This document shows, in pieces, positions 8,206-39,069 of a stretch of 39,069 nucleotides of DNA (position 1 is its first letter; each line of letters begins with the position of its first letter). The notes under the pieces are model-generated. The model searched no databases and had not been told where the DNA came from. It saw only the letters and a list, made by a program, of their open reading frames with translations. The stretch is taken from positions 1 to 39,069 of the forward strand of contig CAMHSI010000010.1 of the NCBI GenBank assembly GCA_946187775.1. Direction: 5' to 3'. Both the position numbers and the translations under genes were made by a program. The stretch is from an uncultured Clostridia bacterium. Its GTDB lineage: Bacteria > Bacillota > Clostridia > Christensenellales > Aristaeellaceae.

Positions 8206-11200
8206 ATGTATAAATTGACGGGACACGGGCTGACGCGGGGGGAATGGTTCGTCCCGGAAAGCCAGCCCATGACGCTGACGGAGCGGAACAGCTCCTGCAG
8301 CATCACGCTGGGGCCCCGGGCGCTGGAGATCGGTTTTGACGACTGGATCCTGGACAACGACTGGCCCGAGGGGCCCACGGTCTGGCGGGTGAAGTCGATC
8401 GACAACCAGGTGGACAAGGAGACCGTGACGGTGCAGATGGAGCACGTCATCCGCCGGCTGGAGGATATTAAATTATTCGCCGGGGCCTCCCCTGCCGACA
8501 TGGGCGGCGGGGACACGGTGCCCGCGAAGACGGCCATCAGCTGGATTCTCTCCCATCAGTCGGACTGGCGGCTGGGGGACTTCGCCTATCCGGCGGACTA
8601 CGCCCTCCCCTATGAGTTCTCCGGCGGGGAAAGCCTGCTGGACGCGATCGAGAGCGTGACGGAGACGCTGGAGGACAGCGAGTGGTGGTACGACATGAGC
8701 GTGTACCCCTTCCTGCTGCACATCCGGCGGCGGTCCGCGGACGCGGCCTGCGAGATGCGGGGCGGGCGGAATCTTTCCACCCTGCGGCGGTCGATGAACC
8801 GGAGCGGGATGTACACCCGGATCTATCCCGTCGGCCGGAACGACATGCACCTCCCGGAGGAATACCTGAGCGAAAACGAGGGTGTGTACGGCCGGGTGGA
8901 CAAGGTCGAGACCGACCAGGGCAAGACCTCCGAGGCGGGCCTGCGGGCCTGGGCCGCCGGCCGGCTGCGGCGGCACTGCGAGCCGGTGGTGACCGTCACG
9001 ATCAGCGGGCTGGAATTGAGCCAGGAGACCGGCGAGGCCCTGGACACGATTACCGTCAACCGGGTGTGCCGGTGCCCGCTGCCGGAATACCGGACGACGA
9101 TCCTGGAGCGGGTGATTAAGAAGGCCTGGCGGGACCGGCGGGCGGATCCGGAGAGCGTCACCGTGACGCTGGGGAACAACAGCGCCGACGTGACCGACCT
9201 GACGAAGGTGCTGGAGGCCGGGAGCAAAACGAGCGGCCGCAGCGCCCGGGGCCAGGCGAAACAGAATTACCTCTTCGAGGCCAACGGGGAACACCTGCTG
9301 TATGAGGTGTTCGACGAGTGCGGACACCTGCATGGGGTGCTCCGGATGACGGAGCAGAGCCTGCGGGTGGCCTTCGAGAATCTGAACGACTGCACGCGGT
9401 CGGAGTTTAAGCTGACGAGCGAGAGCCTGCGGGTGCAGTTCGAGAATGAGATCCAGTGCACGCGGTCGGAGCTGCAGATGACATCGGAGTCGCTGCGGGT
9501 GCAGTTTGAAAACGAGATCCAGTGCACGCGGTCGGAGCTGCAGATGACGTCGGAGTCGCTGCGGGTGATCTTCGAGAATGATGTGGCCAGCGTGCGCAGC
9601 TCGCTGGAGATGACCGCCTCTTCCCTGCGGACGCAGTTCACCAACGACATCAACTCCACAAGGAGTGAGTTCCAGCAGACCAGCGAGAGCATGCGGATCA
9701 GCTTCGCCAACGACGTGGCCAGCGTGCGGTCGGAAATGCAGATCACGGCCAGCTCCCTGCGGGTCGTGTTCGAGAACGACGTGGCCAGCGTGCGGTCAGA
9801 GCTGCAGATCACGGCTACGTCCATGCGGACCGCCTTCGAGAGCGACATCGCCAGCGTACGCAGCGAGGTGACCCAGACGGAAAGCAGCTGGAAGGCCGCA
9901 GTGGCCGGGGTGGCCGGGGCGGATGGGAAAATCACCGCGGCCAGCATTGGGGTGGCCATCAACAAGGACGGAAGCAACGCCTTTATCAACGCGGACCACA
10001 TCCACATCACCGGGGACACGCTGCTGAGCGGACATCTGAGCGTCAAGAACGGGCACCTGAGCGTGGACACGGCGCTGAGCGTCGGGAACACCATCGGAAA
10101 GATTGTCACGATCAATAACGGCAGCGTGCAGGCGCCGACGGTGCAGGTCAACAGCGGCGGAAAGCTGCTGCTGGTCGGGTCAGGCGAAAACCAGCGGACG
10201 GAGCTGACCTTCGCGGGGATCCAGGAGTACATCAAGAAGGCGGAGCTCGACGGGAACACGCTGAAGCTGTACAAGGTGTCGGACAGCTCGACGCCGTCCA
10301 TAACTTTTAGCAAAGCCACCACTCTGGAAGGGGCGTGGAGCGGTGGCAAGCTGACGGTGGACGCCTATCAGACCAACAGCGGCACAAAGACCAAGGTCAA
10401 GAGCTTTTCCTCCACCCAGGAAATTGCGCTGGACGGCAACGGGAGCGCGAACTTCTCCGCCCAGGTTAAGAGCCAGGACACCGGGGAGAACACCCAGACC
10501 GTGCGGTACAGCAAATATATTTACCTGGTGGAGCAGGTTAACGGGGTCAACAGCAAGGTCGTGGCAGGAGAAAACAGCGACGGGACAAGCCCGGTGGGGT
10601 CCGTCAGTACGAAGGCGACCTATCAGGCCGGGCAGAACAGTGTGAACATCACCAAGGGCGCATGGAGCAGCGGGGTCATCCAGTTCACCAAATCCGCCGG
10701 CACGGCCAACACCAAGGAAGTGCGGCTGGTGGCCGCGACGCCCAGCTGGAGCGGAAACACCGCCACGGTGGCCATCTGGGACGGCACGGGCGCGAGTGCC
10801 CAGCAAGGGAGCAACACCGGGTACAGCGTTACGGTGGACGCCACGGCGCGGTATGACGCAGGAAACGCCAACCGGGGCGCGAAACTCACGCCGGCCAACG
10901 TGGCCTCCCAGACCGCCTCCCAGGTGGCTGACGTGCCCGCATCACAGAAGAAAACCGACCTGGCCGCGGATACGTGGTACAAGATTACGCCGCAGTATTC
11001 CAACGCGGCCGGACAGTTCCAGCAGGATACGACGGCCGACAGAGCCCTGTATATCAAGACGCCGGCCAGCAGCAGCGGCGATGCGCCGACGATCACATAC
11101 CATCTATCGAGTGTCCCATTTAAATCATCGGCAGAATTCACCGTCAGTGCAAACGGGAAAAGCACGCCAGGATGGGTAAGTATGTACCCAACCAAGATAC

Positions 11201-11496
11201 TGGTTGACGGTGATTATCATGAAGTCATGAACGTCTGTCAAGAGAGCGATTCTACGAAGATTGTCGCACGGTATGATATTCAGGAAATATGCAATAATTA
11301 TTACAGCAGTGGACATGCACAGGGTGTCATAGACGGGGCGGCGTCTGTAACGCCGGAGGCGCACAGCACAAAGTACAGCCTGTACTGCTCCAAAATCGCA
11401 TACAGCAGTGGCCAGTATTACAATTATACATTCACCGTGACGCTGCCCGGAAATAACAAATTCAGCACGGAACATACATATGATTTCTGGAGATAA
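8206..11496 (+). CDS. Tail-associated (Tal-like) hub and fibre protein
   Basis: A 1096-residue protein. Residues 1 to ~370 form a Tal/gp44-type hub domain (WILDNDWPEGPTVWRVKSID, SWILSHQSDWRLGDF, RIYPVGRNDMHLPEEYL) that plugs the tail tip below Dit. Residues 385-560 are eight 22-residue repeats. A trimer-stem-like stretch follows (HITGDTLLSGHLSVKNGHLS), then beta-rich modules of 80-100 residues to the C-terminus, probably the host-contacting tip. The last ~400 bases are visibly more AT-rich and use other codons, suggesting exchange of the receptor-binding end. No lytic motif is obvious. The start directly follows the Dit stop. Confidence 0.85.
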   Translation: MYKLTGHGLTRGEWFVPESQPMTLTERNSSCSITLGPRALEIGFDDWILDNDWPEGPTVWRVKSIDNQVDKETVTVQMEHVIRRLEDIKLFAGASPADMGGGDTVPAKTAISWILSHQSDWRLGDFAYPADYALPYEFSGGESLLDAIESVTETLEDSEWWYDMSVYPFLLHIRRRSADAACEMRGGRNLSTLRRSMNRSGMYTRIYPVGRNDMHLPEEYLSENEGVYGRVDKVETDQGKTSEAGLRAWAAGRLRRHCEPVVTVTISGLELSQETGEALDTITVNRVCRCPLPEYRTTILERVIKKAWRDRRADPESVTVTLGNNSADVTDLTKVLEAGSKTSGRSARGQAKQNYLFEANGEHLLYEVFDECGHLHGVLRMTEQSLRVAFENLNDCTRSEFKLTSESLRVQFENEIQCTRSELQMTSESLRVQFENEIQCTRSELQMTSESLRVIFENDVASVRSSLEMTASSLRTQFTNDINSTRSEFQQTSESMRISFANDVASVRSEMQITASSLRVVFENDVASVRSELQITATSMRTAFESDIASVRSEVTQTESSWKAAVAGVAGADGKITAASIGVAINKDGSNAFINADHIHITGDTLLSGHLSVKNGHLSVDTALSVGNTIGKIVTINNGSVQAPTVQVNSGGKLLLVGSGENQRTELTFAGIQEYIKKAELDGNTLKLYKVSDSSTPSITFSKATTLEGAWSGGKLTVDAYQTNSGTKTKVKSFSSTQEIALDGNGSANFSAQVKSQDTGENTQTVRYSKYIYLVEQVNGVNSKVVAGENSDGTSPVGSVSTKATYQAGQNSVNITKGAWSSGVIQFTKSAGTANTKEVRLVAATPSWSGNTATVAIWDGTGASAQQGSNTGYSVTVDATARYDAGNANRGAKLTPANVASQTASQVADVPASQKKTDLAADTWYKITPQYSNAAGQFQQDTTADRALYIKTPASSSGDAPTITYHLSSVPFKSSAEFTVSANGKSTPGWVSMYPTKILVDGDYHEVMNVCQESDSTKIVARYDIQEICNNYYSSGHAQGVIDGAASVTPEAHSTKYSLYCSKIAYSSGQYYNYTFTVTLPGNNKFSTEHTYDFWR
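9358..9885 (+). repeat. Eight 66-bp in-frame repeats in the Tal-like gene
   Basis: Eight consecutive 22-residue units of pattern S-(L/M)-R-x-x-F-x-N-(D/E)-(V/I)-x-S/C-x-R-S-E. Units 2 and 3 are identical in protein and nearly so in DNA. They would form a long helical rod linking hub and tip. Confidence 0.95.
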
Positions 11497-13279: not shown

Positions 13280-15265
13280 ATGGCGCGGACAATCCTGCGG
13301 AGCAAACGCAGCCGGGACGGACAGGTCGCCTCGGTGTGGGAAAATATGGGCATGCTGGAGGAGACCGTTTACCAGCGGGAGGAGCAGTGGGCCGGAGAGG
13401 TTCAGAAGTTCAAAGACATGGAGGCTTCCCTGGCTTCCGCCGGGCTGCGGTGCTTCAACAAGCCGAATCTGTTGAAGCAGAATTTCTGGACGCAGAACAG
13501 CGCCCTGGGCCGGAATGTGGTCTACGGGGCTGACAGCCGGTGGGCCGCCACCAGCAGCCCCTACCTGAGCAGCTACAACCGGCCCACCGAGTACACCCAG
13601 ACCACCGCGCCCACCGCCGCGGAGCTGGCCGAGTGCTGCGCGTATTACACGACCACGGAGGATGGGGTCACCACGTATCACCTGTACAAGGACGAGGACG
13701 ACATCAAGGCCACGGTCGCTGACCTGGCCGCGGCCGACCAAATCACAGAGCTGGACGGGGACGTGTACAGCAAGGCCATCCAGTATGCCATTACCGCCAA
13801 TACCGCCTGGGGCAACGCGGAGTGGCTGATGTATTACTGGAGCCAGACCAACAAGTATAAGCAGGGGGACAGCTGCCGGGAGTACGGACAGATCCCCGAG
13901 ATGATTCCCGGCGAGAAGTACACCGTGAGCGTGTGGGCCCGGGTCATCAGCGGGGACGGCGCCCTGATCCGCTTCTCCTGGGGCGGGACGCACAACAATA
14001 CGCCCTTCAACCAGGAGGGAAAGTGCGTCGTGAGCGATCCCATCGAGGTCAAGGGCAGCGCCTGGGCGCGCTACAGCTGGACCTTTACGTTTAACCCCCA
14101 GGGGGACTGGTACACGGAGACCTCGGAGGACGTGGAGGGCGTGACCTGGATCACCCGGAACTACAACTGGAACAAGCGGGTTGCCTTCGGCGTGCTGCGG
14201 AAATGGAACAGCGTGATCCAGCTGACCGGGTTCCGGCTGGTGGCCGGCCGGATGTGGGTCACCGATACCTGGGACGACATCGGGGATAAGATTGACCAGT
14301 ACACCGGGACAATCGATCAGCTGGCCACGGATATGGCCGCGAAGGCCGACAAGGCGAAGACGGAGCTCACCGGGCCCGTCAGCATGGGACGGAAGACCGG
14401 CTCCCCTGCCGGCGTCCGCAGCCTGGCCATGGGCGACAACGCCGTCGCCGGCGGGAAAGGCTCCGCCGCGCAAGGCATCGGGGTCGTGACCTACACGGAC
14501 GGGGGCCGGGCCTTCGGCAGCTACAACGCCGTGCCGACGCGGAACGTGGCCAACTATGCCGTGGCCCATGAGTACGTGGTGGGCGATTATGCGCGGTATG
14601 AGGAGGATATGATCGACCCGGTGACTGAGCAGATCATCCCCGAGGATAGCACGGTGGAGATCTATCTGTGCACGGAGGCGCATACCTCCGTTGAGGACTG
14701 GCCGGATCCAGATAAATGGTATCGGGTCGCGCGGTTTACCCTGGCCGAGTACAGCGGCAACTCTGTGCCGGCGGATCTGCTGGAGGCCGTCGGAAACGGG
14801 ACCGGCGACGGCGCGCGAAGCAATGCCCGGACCCTGGACCGGGATGGAAATGAGACTTTGGCGGGGAAACTCACCCTGGGGGCCGCGCCGGCCGGCGACA
14901 TGGACGCCGCCACGAAGGCTTATGTGGACGGGGCCGGGCCCGTCATTATGGTTAACCTGGGGACCGTTGACCTGGGAAACGGCTCTGTGCGGTTCTACCC
15001 GCCCTTCGCCGCCCACAGATACCGTCCAGCGGAGCTCGTGCTGAGCAGTACGGACGGCATCAGCGCGGTGACGGTCAAAACGGGGAAAACAACCGCCGAA
15101 TATATCAACCTCAACGCCACACTTACAATCACGCCCGGGGTTATGTACAACTACAGCAAAGATGTCACCCTCAAGCTGGAGAAGATCGAAAAGACCTACA
15201 CCCTCGACGGGTCGGCCTGGTCTGAGGCGGATGTAAACGGGGCCACCGTGGATTTCACCTATTAA
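13280..15265 (+). CDS. Long tail fibre protein with carbohydrate-binding-like and head-repeat domains
   Basis: A 661-residue fibre. It starts with a helical segment (SVWENMGMLEETVYQREEQW). Residues ~60-330 hold a beta-sandwich resembling a carbohydrate-binding module (IPGEKYTVSVWARVISGDGA, SAWARYSWTFTFNPQGDWY). Then come a YadA-head-like stretch (SLAMGDNAVAGGKGSAAQG), a short module with DKWYRVARF, and the common phage fibre motif KLTLGAAPAGDMDAATKAYV (~540-560). A beta tip of ~110 residues ends the protein. It is the best candidate for the main receptor-binding fibre. The C-terminal tip is followed 13 bases later by the next gene. Confidence 0.8.
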   Translation: MARTILRSKRSRDGQVASVWENMGMLEETVYQREEQWAGEVQKFKDMEASLASAGLRCFNKPNLLKQNFWTQNSALGRNVVYGADSRWAATSSPYLSSYNRPTEYTQTTAPTAAELAECCAYYTTTEDGVTTYHLYKDEDDIKATVADLAAADQITELDGDVYSKAIQYAITANTAWGNAEWLMYYWSQTNKYKQGDSCREYGQIPEMIPGEKYTVSVWARVISGDGALIRFSWGGTHNNTPFNQEGKCVVSDPIEVKGSAWARYSWTFTFNPQGDWYTETSEDVEGVTWITRNYNWNKRVAFGVLRKWNSVIQLTGFRLVAGRMWVTDTWDDIGDKIDQYTGTIDQLATDMAAKADKAKTELTGPVSMGRKTGSPAGVRSLAMGDNAVAGGKGSAAQGIGVVTYTDGGRAFGSYNAVPTRNVANYAVAHEYVVGDYARYEEDMIDPVTEQIIPEDSTVEIYLCTEAHTSVEDWPDPDKWYRVARFTLAEYSGNSVPADLLEAVGNGTGDGARSNARTLDRDGNETLAGKLTLGAAPAGDMDAATKAYVDGAGPVIMVNLGTVDLGNGSVRFYPPFAAHRYRPAELVLSSTDGISAVTVKTGKTTAEYINLNATLTITPGVMYNYSKDVTLKLEKIEKTYTLDGSAWSEADVNGATVDFTY

Positions 15266-15278
15266 GGGGGTATTTGGG

Positions 15279-15473
15279 ATGGACGGGAATAAAACCATCT
15301 ACCTGACCGGGCTGTATGGCCAGATGATCCCCGTCCGGGCCGGCGACATCCTGCGGGTGATGCCCCACACGGTCTGGACGGAGGTCGTCCTCCTCGGCGG
15401 GACTGTGATTAAGGTCCTGGAGGATGGGGACATGGTGGAAAAAATGAGAGCCGGAGGAAAAGAAAATGATTGA
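15279..15473 (+). CDS. Small protein after the fibre gene, unknown
   Basis: A 64-residue protein preceded by AAGGGGG. The sequence starts MDGNKTIYLTGLYGQMIPVR and contains hydrophobic strands (WTEVVLLGGTVIKVLEDGDM). It may be a small beta-barrel. Its 3' end overlaps the next ORF by 8 bases. No family recognised; its place suggests a fibre chaperone or accessory protein. Confidence 0.55.
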   Translation: MDGNKTIYLTGLYGQMIPVRAGDILRVMPHTVWTEVVLLGGTVIKVLEDGDMVEKMRAGGKEND

Positions 15474-15666
15474 ACTGCCGAAGGGGCTGCAACAGATCGG
15501 AGACGAGGCCTTCCGCGGGTGCTCCGGGTTTAACGGGCAGGTCATGCGGATCCCCAGAGACTGCCGCGTCGGCCGGATGGGGCTGATGGACTGCTTCCTG
15601 GACCGGGTCGAGACCTATCCGACCGAGTTCCGGGAGGATACCACGCCCGAGGAGGTGAACGGCTGA
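15466..15666 (+). CDS. Short leucine-rich-repeat (BspA-type, LRR_5) protein
   Basis: A 66-residue protein starting MIELPKGLQQIGDEAFRGCS. LPKGLQQIGDEAFRGCSGF and the following IPRDCRVGRMGLMDC read as two BspA-type LRR_5 units, in which 'lP.gv..Ig..AF.gC..L..v.iP' repeats. Full BspA proteins carry many such units as adhesins; here only about two remain. It may be a cut-down adhesin module or a small partner of the protease behind it. The start has a GGAGGAAAAG site, and the stop overlaps the next start by one base (TGATG). Confidence 0.6.
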   Translation: MIELPKGLQQIGDEAFRGCSGFNGQVMRIPRDCRVGRMGLMDCFLDRVETYPTEFREDTTPEEVNG

Positions 15667-16337
15667 TGGCCATGGCTACGGTGCTTAAGATGGAGCTGTG
15701 GGACCGGTCGGATGGGAGTGCACGGTGCATGATCACCAGCGTGCCCGTGGACCCGAAAAAGGTCATGAATACGCGGGATTATGCGCATAAATACCGGCGG
15801 CATCTCGCCCAGCTGCGGGCCTATAACCGGTTTATGATCATCATCGACAGCAAGGGCGGCGCGAAGGACTCCGCCATCGGCCTGCTGGACGCGATGCGGG
15901 CCGAAATCGGGACGAAAAAACAGCCGGCCGCCATCCTGATCGACGGCCTGTGCGGCAGCGCGGCGACCTACATCGCCGCGGGGCTGAAAAAGGTGCCGGT
16001 CTACATCACGCCAGGCAGCCGGTACTATATCCACATGCCCAAGACCACCTGCTTCGTGCGGCGGGGCGGCGGCGTCTGGAACGCCATCTACAAGGCCGGG
16101 AATAAGGCCACGATTCGGGATATGGTGAAGATGTACCACCAGAAAACCAGTGTGCCGGCGGGCGGCATATGGAAGGTGCTCGGGATCCGGAAGAAGGTCC
16201 ATGTGCCGAAACGGACCATCCGGAAATGGATGACGGAGGGAAAGTCATTTACCGCCGGGGAGGCGGTTAATTATGGGTTGTGTGACGGGATCATGACACG
16301 GCACGAGTTCGAGAAGGGAGGCGCTTGGGGATGCTGA
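15666..16337 (+). CDS. ClpP-like serine protease in tail/lysis region
   Basis: A 223-residue protein with the ClpP/crotonase fold pattern. FMIIIDSKGGAKDSAIGLLD (residues 56-75) matches the oxyanion-loop strand and GG turn. LIDGLCGSAATYIAAG holds the likely nucleophile Ser98, and YYIHMPK the His123. SFTAGEAVNYGLCDGI matches the C-terminal 'A.e.GlvD.I' helix. The acid residue is not obvious. An insertion of ~60 residues with basic patches (KVLGIRKKVHVPKRTIRKW) lies before that helix. The phage already has a canonical prohead ClpP protease at 37383, so this one must do another job, possibly fibre or tail processing. Coupled by overlap to genes on both sides. Confidence 0.7.
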   Translation: MAMATVLKMELWDRSDGSARCMITSVPVDPKKVMNTRDYAHKYRRHLAQLRAYNRFMIIIDSKGGAKDSAIGLLDAMRAEIGTKKQPAAILIDGLCGSAATYIAAGLKKVPVYITPGSRYYIHMPKTTCFVRRGGGVWNAIYKAGNKATIRDMVKMYHQKTSVPAGGIWKVLGIRKKVHVPKRTIRKWMTEGKSFTAGEAVNYGLCDGIMTRHEFEKGGAWGC

Positions 16338-16432
16338 TGTTTGCGGTGGGCATGTGGTTCGGCGCTATGGTCGGGGCTTTTCTCGTGGTGCTGGTGGTGG
16401 CGGCTGCAGATCGGGGGGATGAGGATGGTTGA
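16331..16432 (+). CDS. Tiny single-pass membrane protein (33 aa)
   Basis: An ORF of 33 residues, MLMFAVGMWFGAMVGAFLVV and onward, one transmembrane helix followed by an acidic DRGDEDG tail. It overlaps the protease gene by 7 bases and the endolysin start by 8. The ribosome site is inside the upstream gene (GGGAGG at 16316-16321). Its place before the endolysin suggests a holin-type or holin-modulating role, but the length is at the lower limit for such proteins. Confidence 0.5.
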   Translation: MLMFAVGMWFGAMVGAFLVVLVVAAADRGDEDG

Positions 16433-17342
16433 CTCCAAGCTGCTCGCCCGGGCAGGGTATACCTACCTGGGGCGGCACTATTCGGAGATGGACTGCCAGG
16501 CTTTCGTCGAGCGGTGCCTGGCTGACTGCGGGAAGCGGGTTAACCTGGCCGGGAGCAATGCCTGGTATCGGAAAATGAGCTGGGTCGGCACGCCTGAGGA
16601 GTGCCGGAAAATGTTCGGGTGCATCCCTGAGGGCGCGTTCCTGTTTATCCTGGAGAACGACGGGAAGGAGCCCGCTAAGTACCGCGGGGACGGCGTCGGA
16701 AACGCCTCCCACATCGGGATCTACACCGGCACCCGCCAGGGCGCCATCCACTCCAGCGCTTCCCGTGGCTGCGTCGCGGAGAGCCGGTTTGCCGGGAAAT
16801 CTATCCGGGGCGGGTGGAACCGCGTCGGGCTGTGGCGGGAAATCAGCTACAGCACCAGCATCAATGCCGCCCTGGGGCGCGATCCCGGCGCGGAAAAGGT
16901 CAAAGAGAACGGAGGGATTATTATGGGCATGTACGCGAAAACGGTGCCCACGTCCACCAGTCGCGGCGATACCGTCAACATGCGCAAGGGCGCCAGCCTC
17001 GATCACAAGATCGTCACGCGGGTGCCCTTCGGGGCGAAGGTGCTGGTGGTCCAGGATCTGGGGAAATGGTGCCAGGTTAAATGGACCGACGGCACCGGCC
17101 ACGACTGGAACGGGTACATCGCCAGCGATTACATCGAGTACGGCGGCGCGGACGGCGAGGCCGGCGAGGTGTCGCTGGATCAGTGCAACGAGATCGACCT
17201 GGGCATCGGCGAGGCTGAGGGGCTGCAGCGGCGGCTCCTGGCCGTGCTCGACAGGGACGGCGCCGGCGATGAGGCTCTGCAGCTGGTGCGCGATACCTTG
17301 GAGACACTGGACCGTGTCGGCGCGATCGTGGGGCGGGGGTAA
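16425..17342 (+). CDS. Endolysin, NlpC/P60-type with SH3b domain
   Basis: A 305-residue peptidoglycan hydrolase. Residues 1-150 form an NlpC/P60-like cysteine peptidase: EMDCQAFVERCLADCG with nucleophile Cys24, and NASHIGIYTG with His96. Such enzymes cut peptide bonds near D-Glu in the stem peptide. Residues ~167-245 are an SH3b wall-binding domain (TVNMRKGASLDHKIV, GAKVLVVQ, WCQVKW, GYIASDYIEY). A helical C-terminal tail follows. I chose ATG 16425 (GGGGGGATGAGG site); the longer frame from 16341 only adds a Trp-rich antisense-like stretch. There is no signal peptide, so export depends on the holin. Confidence 0.9.
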   Translation: MVDSKLLARAGYTYLGRHYSEMDCQAFVERCLADCGKRVNLAGSNAWYRKMSWVGTPEECRKMFGCIPEGAFLFILENDGKEPAKYRGDGVGNASHIGIYTGTRQGAIHSSASRGCVAESRFAGKSIRGGWNRVGLWREISYSTSINAALGRDPGAEKVKENGGIIMGMYAKTVPTSTSRGDTVNMRKGASLDHKIVTRVPFGAKVLVVQDLGKWCQVKWTDGTGHDWNGYIASDYIEYGGADGEAGEVSLDQCNEIDLGIGEAEGLQRRLLAVLDRDGAGDEALQLVRDTLETLDRVGAIVGRG

Positions 17343-36147: not shown

Positions 36148-37386
36148 ATGAAGAATCCATTCAGGCGACACAAGGCCCAGGCGCGGGACAAGCCCGGCGT
36201 GCGGGCGAGCAGGAACCTGCGGGCGCTGACCCGGCCGCGGGCCGACATCACCATCCAGGGCAACGAGGCGATTTACGCCGCGGTGAGCCGGATCAGCAAC
36301 ACCATCGCGTGCATGCCGATCCACCTGTACAAGGGGTTTGAGATCCAGAAGGACCATCCGCTGGAGCGGCTGATCAGCCTGGAGCCCCACCCGAATTTCA
36401 CCGCGTTCACCTGGCGGCAGACCATGGAGGTGATGCGGAACACGGAGGGCAACGCCTACGCGCTGCGGGTCCTGAACAACTACGGCCAGACCGTGCGGCT
36501 GGACATCCTGAACCCCACGCGGGTGACGCCCCAGACCGACCCGGAGGACGGGAGCATCTGGTACGCCATCACGATGGACGACGGGAAACAGGCCTTGGCG
36601 CCCGGCTTCCTGGTGGTCAACCTGCGGCACATGAGCGCCAACGGCATCAGGGGAATCCGGCCGATCGACGTGCTGCGGAAAAGCCTGGACTACGACACGC
36701 AGGTCAAGGCCCTGAGCCTGGACCAGCTGGACGGCGTCAACCACGGGGTGGCGCTGACCATCCCCAGCGTGGGCCTGAGCCAGGCGCAGAAAGACGAGGC
36801 TGTGGACAGGTTTCTGGAGACCTACGAAAAGAGCGGGAGAAGCGTGGTCATCCTGGAGGGCGGCATGACCGCTACCAATTTTTCCAGCAGCCCGGTGGAC
36901 GCCCAGCTGCTGGACGTGGAGCGGATTACCCGCAACCGGGTGGCCACGGTGTACAACCTGCCGCCCCACCTGCTGGGGGATTACACGGACACCAGCTTCG
37001 GCACCGCCGAGCAGCAGATGATGGAATATCTGCAGCTGACGATCACGCCGATCGTGGAGCAGTGGGAGGAAGAGCTGGACCGGAAGCTGCTGACGCCGGA
37101 GGACTACGCGGCGGGCTACCGGTTCCGCTTCGACACGGCGAGCCTGACCCGGACGGACGTCAAAACGACCGCGGAGCGGAACCAGATGGCCATCCGCGGC
37201 GGATGGCGGAAACCGAACGAGGTGCGGGCGGAGCTGAGCCTGCCGCCGGATCCCTACGGCGACCAGCTGATGAGCAGCCGGGATCTGATCCCGCTGTCCG
37301 TCTCCGTGGAGCATCCGGAGCTGCTGCTGGGCGGCAAGGCTGCTCCCGCGGGCGATTCTGAGGGAAAGGAGGAAAAGACTGAGTGA
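36148..37386 (+). CDS. Portal protein, HK97 family
   Basis: A 412-residue portal (PF04860). Recognisable blocks are AIYAAVSRISNTIACMPIHL, HPLERLISLEPHPNFTAFTW, EGNAYALRVLNNYG, LDILNPTRVTP, GIRGIRPIDVLRKSLDY, then NRVATVYNLPPHLLGDYTD and QQMMEYLQLTITPIVEQWEE. Twelve copies form the DNA channel at one capsid corner and dock the terminase. The ribosome site is GGGGGTGAG. The stop overlaps the protease start. Confidence 0.95.
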   Translation: MKNPFRRHKAQARDKPGVRASRNLRALTRPRADITIQGNEAIYAAVSRISNTIACMPIHLYKGFEIQKDHPLERLISLEPHPNFTAFTWRQTMEVMRNTEGNAYALRVLNNYGQTVRLDILNPTRVTPQTDPEDGSIWYAITMDDGKQALAPGFLVVNLRHMSANGIRGIRPIDVLRKSLDYDTQVKALSLDQLDGVNHGVALTIPSVGLSQAQKDEAVDRFLETYEKSGRSVVILEGGMTATNFSSSPVDAQLLDVERITRNRVATVYNLPPHLLGDYTDTSFGTAEQQMMEYLQLTITPIVEQWEEELDRKLLTPEDYAAGYRFRFDTASLTRTDVKTTAERNQMAIRGGWRKPNEVRAELSLPPDPYGDQLMSSRDLIPLSVSVEHPELLLGGKAAPAGDSEGKEEKTE

Positions 37387-38324
37387 GCAAGTTTTTTAAC
37401 CTTGCGCCCTCCGCGGACAACCCGGCGGACGGGGAGCTGGACATCAACGGGGTCATCAGCTCGGGGGAATGGTTCGACGATGACGTGACTCCGGCCCAGT
37501 TTAAGCAGGCCCTGGCGGGCTGCAGGAACGTCACCGTCCGGATCAACAGCCCCGGCGGGGATGTGATGGCCGGCGCGGAGATCTACAGCGCCCTGCTGGA
37601 GCACCGTCTGAACGGCCGGGGCAGGGTGACGGTGATCATTACCGCGCTGGCGGCATCGGCGGCTTCGGTCGTCGCCATGGCCGGGGATGAGATCCTGATC
37701 AGCCCGGTGGCCTACATGATGATCCATAATCCCTGGAGCTTTGCCCTGGGCGATTCCCACGACATGCGGCATGAAGCCAAGGTGCTGGACGAAATCCGGG
37801 AAGGCCTGATCACCGCCTACGAGCGGAAGACCGGGAAGGACCGGGAAGCCCTGCGGAAAATGTTGGATCAGGAAACCTGGATGAGCGCCACCACCTGCGT
37901 GGAGGAAGGATTCGCCGACGGCATCTGGGGCGGGGACATCCAGGCGGCCGCGTGCAGCGTGCCCGCCATGATGACCGGACCCCGGGCCGACGCCGTGCGG
38001 GAGCTGTGCGCCCGGTGGGAAGCGGCACGGAAGCCGGACAAAGCGACCGCGGGCGCGGGCGAATGTTCGGGAAATACGGTGACGATCGACGCCACGGGCG
38101 ACGATCCGCGGGCAATTGTTTCCTGTCCGGCCGGAAAAACCGAACAGTGGAACCCGGAAGACATCCGGACCGGGTACCCGGCCGTGAAGGCGGAGGATGA
38201 TCCGGAGAAGGCAAACACTCTCCGGGCGGAAATCGCCGCACGGGCTCAGGCAATCGCCGACGCCGCGCAGGGATGGTTTGACGCGGAGCAGCGCCTCCAG
38301 GACTACCTGGGGGATATGCGGTAA
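37383..38324 (+). CDS. Prohead maturation protease, ClpP-like
   Basis: A 313-residue S14-type protease starting at GTG inside the portal stop. The ClpP core: VRINSPGGDVMAGAEIYSAL, catalytic Ser92 in TALAASAASVVAMAG, His115 in MMIHNPW, and TWMSATTCVEEGFADGI. The core ends near residue 195. The remaining ~120 residues are disordered and then helical (EDDPEKANTLRAEIAARAQA); they may act as scaffold or processing segment. It removes the capsid delta domain and scaffold during head maturation. Confidence 0.93.
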   Translation: MSKFFNLAPSADNPADGELDINGVISSGEWFDDDVTPAQFKQALAGCRNVTVRINSPGGDVMAGAEIYSALLEHRLNGRGRVTVIITALAASAASVVAMAGDEILISPVAYMMIHNPWSFALGDSHDMRHEAKVLDEIREGLITAYERKTGKDREALRKMLDQETWMSATTCVEEGFADGIWGGDIQAAACSVPAMMTGPRADAVRELCARWEAARKPDKATAGAGECSGNTVTIDATGDDPRAIVSCPAGKTEQWNPEDIRTGYPAVKAEDDPEKANTLRAEIAARAQAIADAAQGWFDAEQRLQDYLGDMR

Positions 38325-38387: not shown

Positions 38388-39069
38388 ATGAACCTGCAGG
38401 AAATGATGAACAGCATCAGCACCCTGGGCGCGCAGATCCGCGCCAAGAACCAGGAAATCGCCGCCATGGCGGCGGACAACAGCGCGGACCTGTCCGCGAT
38501 GAATGCGAAAAAGGAGGAACTGAACACCATGAACGAGCGGCTGACCATGCTCCAGAACGCGTATAACGCGGAGAAGAACGCCCAGGCGGTCAACGTGGTC
38601 CCCGCGGCGAAGCCCGCCGGCAGGATCCGGGCCTGCAACGAGTATGCCCGCGCTTTTGCCTACGCCATGAAGCACGGCCTGAACGCCAGGAACGGCATGG
38701 GCAACGAGAACGTGAAGATCCTGTTTGACGCGCTGACCGAGGAGGGCGGCTCCCCCGCTGGCACGGACGGCGGGTTCCTGGTGCCCGAGGATATGGACCA
38801 CCAGATCCGCGAACTCAAGCGGGCGCTGAACCCCCTGAGCGCGCTGTTCAACGTGGAGAACGTGACCAGCTTCACCGGCTGGCGCGTGGTGGACACCGCG
38901 CCCACCAGCGGCATGACCCTGGTGAACGAGATGGGCACCATCCCCACCGACGACCAGCCCGCGTTCGTGAAGGTGCCCTACACGCTGGACAAGTACGCGC
39001 TGCGGCTGCCCGTGTCCAACGAGCTGCTGAGCGACGAGGTGGCCGGGCTGATGGCCTACCTGTCCAAGT
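38388..39069 (+). CDS. Major capsid protein, HK97 fold, N-terminal part (3' end outside window)
   Basis: The first 227 residues of the capsid protein, with an AGGAGGAAC site. Residues 1-70 are the coiled-coil delta domain (SISTLGAQIRAKNQEIAAMA) that acts as scaffold and is probably removed by the protease upstream. The mature part follows: EEGGSPAGTDGGFLVPEDMD, LKRALNPLSALFNVENVTSF, GWRVVDTAPTSGM, YTLDKYALRLPVSNELL. The window ends within the spine-helix region. The C-terminal end is at bases 1-371. Joining the edges keeps the frame, but a segment of the usual protein seems absent between them. Confidence 0.95.
   Translation, partial: MNLQEMMNSISTLGAQIRAKNQEIAAMAADNSADLSAMNAKKEELNTMNERLTMLQNAYNAEKNAQAVNVVPAAKPAGRIRACNEYARAFAYAMKHGLNARNGMGNENVKILFDALTEEGGSPAGTDGGFLVPEDMDHQIRELKRALNPLSALFNVENVTSFTGWRVVDTAPTSGMTLVNEMGTIPTDDQPAFVKVPYTLDKYALRLPVSNELLSDEVAGLMAYLSK

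What the first reader, a model, noticed from the sequence alone, without database searches (positions are those of the whole stretch)
15279..16432. Cassette of LRR fragment, second ClpP-like protease and tiny membrane protein between fibre and lysin
Four overlapping ORFs follow the main fibre. One holds two BspA-type LRR units; the next keeps the ClpP Ser98 and His123 with the typical GG turn and C-terminal helix, yet the phage has its own prohead ClpP protease 21 kb away. A protease translated together with fibre and lysis genes could process fibres, cut host surface proteins or control lysis. I know of no established role for a ClpP homologue at this place.
Basis: partly seen in the sequence, partly recalled or inferred. 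Interest (0 to 1): 0.75.

Follow-up and report, generated by a model that had tools for sequence, protein, structure and literature searches.

The report
ClpP-like partner of phage fibre
A phage carries, next to its host-binding tail fibre, a second protein with the fold of the ClpP protease, and related phages usually carry this protein together with the same kind of fibre, even where the two genes lie far apart, which suggests that it works on or with the fibre.

The parts
13280..15265 (+). fibre, 661 aa, partner of the ClpP-like protein
   Evidence: its domain is found with 18 ClpP-like genes
13697..14299 (+). CBM4-like domain of the fibre (first row of alignment A5), the part shared by the partners
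15279..15473 (+). 64-aa ORF of unknown function between fibre and ClpP-like gene
   Evidence: homologue in the same slot of L181/G449, E 6e-8; no Pfam or PHROG match at E<=1
15466..15666 (+). 66-aa ORF with a BspA-type LRR remnant
   Evidence: LRR_5 E 0.021, below cut-off; homologues directly before ClpP-like genes in L154 and L043/L153
15666..16337 (+). ClpP-fold protein, 223 aa: Ser98, His123, Gly64-Gly65; Gly192 at the ClpP Asp171 position
16325..16432 (+). 35-aa membrane-segment ORF; homologues with ClpP-like gene and kin lysin (L135/L234), with ClpP-like gene but no kin lysin seen (L181), and with lysin but no ClpP-like gene (L010)
16425..17342 (+). lysin: bacterial SH3 plus NlpC/P60-like part
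   Evidence: PF08239 1e-9; NlpC/P60 E 0.013 below cut-off; 23 kin loci
37383..38324 (+). the phage's own prohead ClpP-type protease (not part of the pair; for reference)
   Evidence: PF00574 1.3e-27, phrog_94 6.5e-74; lies outside the family in the tree

Best explanation
The ClpP-like protein is a dedicated accessory (maturation) factor of a fibre whose receptor-binding part is a CBM4-like carbohydrate-binding domain. Made in the cytoplasm, it docks on the fibre and, most likely, makes a limited cut in it or in something needed to assemble it, using Ser98 and His123 without the usual aspartate, so that its activity may depend on oligomerisation or on docking to the fibre. SHOWN here: ClpP fold by sequence and model; invariant Ser, His and GG; loss of the third acid; separate clade; frequent reciprocal presence with the fibre domain, also where genes are far apart and partners were swapped; no N-terminal hydrophobic segment in 17 of 18 stretches scanned. 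INFERRED: physical contact with the fibre, catalysis, and that the fibre is the substrate.
Against: No biochemical data. Pairwise identities of fibre and ClpP-like proteins do not correlate (r 0.08, Mantel p 0.19), so there is no sign of fine co-adaptation. The fibre ends 10-17 residues after the domain in 6 of the 18 ClpP-bearing partners, so there is no constant C-terminal piece to remove. Of the 6 records first met through the fibre, only 3 have the ClpP-like gene; the misses are a 31.6-kb contig on which nine scanned ORFs show no head gene (G580), a contig ending inside the fibre (G586) and a 72-aa match of 31.7 bits (G587). Two carriers, G585 and G578, share 15 and 11 of the 27 window genes, so not all pairs are in unrelated phages. 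The third acid is lost, so the protein may be inactive.
Confidence: 0.5

Rival explanations
1. Non-catalytic fibre chaperone or fibre-bound subunit: a ClpP fold re-used as an assembly factor, as other small proteins are for other fibres; Ser and His kept for structure only.
For: Third catalytic residue lost in the 17 members resolved there; fibre pairing; [quoted passage not shown]
Against: Ser, His and the oxyanion GG are invariant in 18 of 18 although the proteins are only about 30% identical (median), which a scaffold alone would not need.
Confidence: 0.22
2. Receptor-directed enzyme: it destroys or alters the host structure that this fibre type recognises (superinfection exclusion or release of progeny), so that it goes with the fibre type.
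For: Explains pairing with a fibre type without contact, the tree discordance and the distant positions in 6 of 18; one member (G576) has an N-terminal hydrophobic segment.
Against: 17 of 18 show no N-terminal hydrophobic segment in the stretch scanned; the fibre domain is closest to glycan-binding modules, and a shared fold shows no function.
Confidence: 0.15
3. Hitch-hiking: the two genes merely circulate together in one pool of related phages, without a shared function.
For: The 8 rows of profile A5 all come from ClpP-like carriers; records are few and partly fragments; no identity correlation; only 3 of 6 records first met through the fibre have the gene; some carriers are kin (G585, G578).
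Against: Pairs persist 11-19 kb apart, in carriers that share little else with the window (G582, G581, G579, G584), with a baseplate wedge protein in G584 and other terminase and portal families in G583, and with swapped partners.
Confidence: 0.1
4. Relocated prohead protease doing head maturation from another place.
For: Best PHROG matches are head maturation proteases.
Against: Separate clade, 100/99, from 17 head-type rows; carriers also have a head-type protease, e.g. the window, G583, G577, G585, G398.
Confidence: 0.02

Closest known systems
ClpP proteolytic subunit (Pfam PF00574; S14 is recalled)
   Different: no acid at the Asp171 column, remote sequence, phage gene that goes with a fibre; whether it has an ATPase partner was not looked for
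ClpP-type prohead (head maturation) proteases of phages
   Same: closest PHROG profiles; phage-encoded ClpP fold
   Different: separate clade, mostly about 195-262 aa, beside the fibre or elsewhere, and in several carriers present in addition to a head-type protease
Listeria monocytogenes ClpP1 (PDB 4jcq/4jcr)
   Same: among the best structural matches; third catalytic residue not Asp (passage of PMC9765437)
   Different: Asn there, Gly here; works in a ClpP1/2 complex of the cell
Phage fibre chaperones (T4 gp38, Mu Tfa, V22 gp27)
   Same: small gene directly downstream of a fibre gene
   Different: not compared here by sequence or structure; that none of them has a ClpP fold is recalled
CBM4 carbohydrate-binding modules (Rhodothermus xylanase CBM4-2)
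   Different: 17-18% identity, part of a phage fibre, ligand unknown

Membership tests
ClpP fold family | significant match to PF00574 | tested here: met
   window 4e-10; 14 of 14 members of A4 at E<=0.01
ClpP fold family | ClpP fold | tested here: met
ClpP fold family | nucleophile Ser, His and oxyanion GG | tested here: met
   18 of 18
ClpP fold family | third catalytic residue Asp (or another acid) | tested here: not met
   17 of 17 rows with a letter at this column are non-acidic, 14 of them Gly; G576 has a gap; the 6 cellular-type rows all have Asp there. So it is called a ClpP-fold protein, not an active ClpP
ClpP fold family | tetradecamer and partner AAA+ ATPase | not testable with these tools
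   only a monomer model could be made
Phage prohead (head maturation) protease | groups with head proteases in a tree | tested here: not met
   17 family rows on one side of a branch, 100/99, against 17 head and 6 cellular-type rows (the near-copy G588 was dropped before, and L036 was not included)
Phage prohead (head maturation) protease | gene between portal and capsid | tested here: not met
   12 lie beside the fibre; of the 6 others G583 and G588 lie before the terminase, G579 and G581 before the lysin, G577 downstream of a primase/helicase gene; neighbours of G394 were not identified
Phage fibre accessory factor | gene goes with one fibre type | tested here: met
   same 5 of 300 genomes; 11 of 14 and 12 of 13 records; but 3 of 6 records first met through the fibre
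Phage fibre accessory factor | needed for fibre folding, trimerisation or binding | not testable with these tools
   needs co-expression
Lysis protein | goes with the lysin | tested here: not met
   4 of 23 lysin-kin loci have a whole gene, one more (L008/G593) is cut by the contig end; L029 begins inside the lysin and shows no upstream DNA

The most novel reading that the evidence does not exclude
A two-gene receptor-recognition module: a CBM4-type fibre and its own ClpP-fold partner that has given up the catalytic aspartate and is active (Ser-His) only when docked on that fibre: a ClpP homologue devoted to the phage tail rather than the head, kept together with its fibre across quite different phages even where the genes are unlinked.
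Probability: 0.35. Interest if true: 0.82.

Novelty: new variant of a known kind. Interest (0 to 1): 0.7.

Why it matters
ClpP homologues in phages are mostly filed as head maturation proteases (as PHROGs do here). A separate clade that goes with a fibre domain would be a new job for the fold and a new kind of fibre accessory factor, and 'Clp protease' annotations near tail genes would need a second look. It also gives a concrete, testable pair of proteins for how carbohydrate-binding fibres of such phages are made functional.

Tried and rejected
Lysis control: rejected, see membership test. Head protease moved by recombination: rejected. Removal of a constant C-terminal pro-domain: not supported. 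Mirror-tree co-evolution: tried, no correlation. Single-protein searches with P0001 in viral contigs and genome contigs found no relative, in phages one 25% match to a head protease, in 297 genomes of the order, besides the window itself, only weak matches in three genomes. The members came from lysin neighbours, then from profiles and a DNA pattern. The whole fibre gave nothing in viral contigs; its domain profile did. No match of the fibre domain in 50,697 phage records for the two members tried. The L022 ClpP-like protein matches 50 phage records; the 15 listed are 28-32% identical and are named Clp or head protease, major head protein or hypothetical, or carry no annotation. Portal and terminase Pfam models matched only G577 of 8 records, so they could not tell whether G580 lacks its head module; nine G580 ORFs scanned with PHROGs gave tail, integration and replication genes, unknowns, and no head gene. 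Foldseek 'pdb' could not be queued; the VIA second look and BFVD (of 50 rows shown many are Clp or other proteases) were used. Catalytic distances could not be measured, as no coordinates are given out. Fibre domain in the order: 1 of 396 genomes, the window's own.

Weak points: A5 was built from 8 fibre domains that all come from ClpP-like carriers, A4 from the first 14 members. The Fisher value 3.4e-5 (table 12/2/2/17) and 5e-11 for 5 of 5 in 300 treat related phages as independent and are rough. That table leaves out the weak match G587 and the three genome-based records G590-G592; it counts the truncated G593 and the fragment G589 as 'ClpP-like only' and G580 and G586 as 'fibre only'. Of the 23 lysin loci the 18 controls leave out the four ClpP-like carriers and L026, a twin of L025. 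The head/family profile test covered the 20 loci that one search returned (of 69 genomes with a match), plus six from other calls. The hydropathy scan used the matched stretch, which begins at the profile match and is cut at the 5' end for G590. Several carriers were fetched in part (G577, G579, G581, G588 nearly whole; G398 36 kb of a 200-kb contig), and one capsid fragment was dropped from the 28 window genes.

Literature: six word searches listed no paper whose title or abstract start describes a ClpP homologue paired with a fibre; two searches returned nothing. One search found the papers on ClpP without Asp. Seen: passages only of PMC9765437, PMC12900304 and PMC7289586, and the outline of the last. 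The number Asp171 of E. coli ClpP is recalled; the column itself is fixed by Asp in 6 of 6 cellular-type rows. Names of window genes such as Tal, Dit, tape measure and holin rest on position and reading by eye.

Full report
WHAT IS THERE. Starts and stops overlap (15466/15473, 15666, 16325/16337), as in genes translated together. The window is a whole contig of a 1.9-Mb incomplete genome and reads, by eye and position, as a tailed phage: tail genes, fibres, the cassette, lysin, holin-like ORFs, early genes, then a terminase (2780 phage records match), a portal-like ORF and the prohead protease.

THE ClpP-LIKE PROTEIN. P0001 (223 aa) matches Pfam CLP_protease at 4e-10 and a PHROG head maturation protease family at 2e-11. 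It is so remote that 50,697 phage records gave one match, 25% identical to a head protease, and peptide words in viral and genome contigs gave none. The window's own prohead ClpP-type protease is another gene, 37383-38324.

FINDING ITS FAMILY. I searched for relatives of the neighbouring lysin: 23 loci in viral contigs. In four a ClpP-like ORF precedes the lysin: L009, L018, L022, L028. Profile and pattern scans added L033-L036, L043, L058, L135, L141 and L152; whole-genome and record searches added G449, G488, G578, G582 and G585. I paired 18 ClpP-like genes with a fibre. L036 (record G589, a 14.3-kb fragment) is a further member without a fibre on its contig, and L008/G593 shows a cut end of another. 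The 18 score 145-271 bits with the family profile. Of the 20 loci returned from the 300 genomes, 5 score higher with the family profile than with a head-protease profile and 15 the other way round. A maximum-likelihood tree puts 17 family rows (the near-copy G588 left out) on one side of a branch with 100/99 support against 17 head-type and 6 cellular-type rows.

MORE THAN LINKAGE. Twelve pairs are neighbours, fibre first, with at most about 0.7 kb between fibre and matched ClpP-like stretch; six lie 11-19 kb apart: G577, G579, G581, G583, G588, G394. Of 27 window genes compared with 10 carriers, only the fibre and the ClpP-like gene were found in all 10. G582 matched no other gene at E<=1e-4, G581 and G579 one and two others; but G585 and G578 share 15 and 11 of 27 and are kin of the window phage. 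G584 has a baseplate wedge protein, and G583 a terminase (phrog_15) and a portal (phrog_21) without a match to the window's. The trees disagree at supported nodes: G588 has a ClpP-like protein 97% identical to G583's but a fibre domain grouping with G585 and G586; G398 has its ClpP-like protein with G582 and its fibre within the group of G583, G577, G579 and G394. Identities do not correlate. So partners were swapped and both genes kept. This argues for a functional bond to the fibre type, less for a finely co-adapted interface. Hitch-hiking in a shared phage pool is not excluded by so few records.

OTHER PARTS. The lysin, the 35-aa membrane ORF, the LRR ORF and the 64-aa ORF are each found with only some members. 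A small ORF with an acidic tail lies between fibre and ClpP-like gene in G449, G488, G574 and G576. Three lysin-kin phages without the ClpP-like gene (L017, L023, L027) have a Peptidase_C39-type ORF shortly before the lysin, perhaps another protease serving another fibre; not followed up.

HOW IT MOST LIKELY WORKS. The protein is probably made in the cytoplasm, where fibres are folded and trimerised. A ClpP-fold oligomer could hold the CBM4-like domains, and a Ser-His site that is weak by itself could be completed on docking. A limited cut is my first choice because Ser, His and GG are fixed; a pure chaperone is the next. As the fibre ends 10-17 aa after the domain in 6 of 18, a cut would have to lie in or before the domain, or in another protein. 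All of this paragraph is inference.

VERDICT. The fibre link is well supported by presence and absence; the mechanism is open. Six word searches of the held papers listed no report of such a pairing in titles or abstract starts.

Noticed in passing
L017:1864-2301, L023:93-569, L027:4930-5403: Peptidase_C39-type ORFs (PF03412, E 2e-20 to 1.5e-26) lie shortly before the kin lysin in phages without the ClpP-like gene: perhaps an alternative protease near the same slot.
   Followed up: partly
L181:3911-4288, L180:783-1106, L018:4921-5223, L058:873-1262: A small ORF (100-129 aa, acidic tail) recurs between fibre and ClpP-like gene; no Pfam match for the two tested (L018, L058).
   Followed up: no
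window 1-~400 and 38400-39069: By eye, a capsid-like reading frame seems to run across the two contig ends with a piece missing, so the contig is probably a cut-open phage genome.
   Followed up: partly
window 8206-11496: The Tal-like protein holds several head-to-tail repeats of roughly 20-25 aa ('SESLRVQFENE...'; by eye); part of it matches Streptococcus phage proteins annotated as hyaluronidase.
   Followed up: no
L022:4545-5222, L028:2585-3334: Two similar proteins of unknown function (no Pfam or PHROG match for L022's) directly precede the distal ClpP-like gene, away from the fibre.
   Followed up: no
head-type rows L069, L055, L083, L087, L090, L143: One clade of phage head-type ClpP proteases also lacks the acid at the Asp171 column (Thr there).
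   Followed up: no
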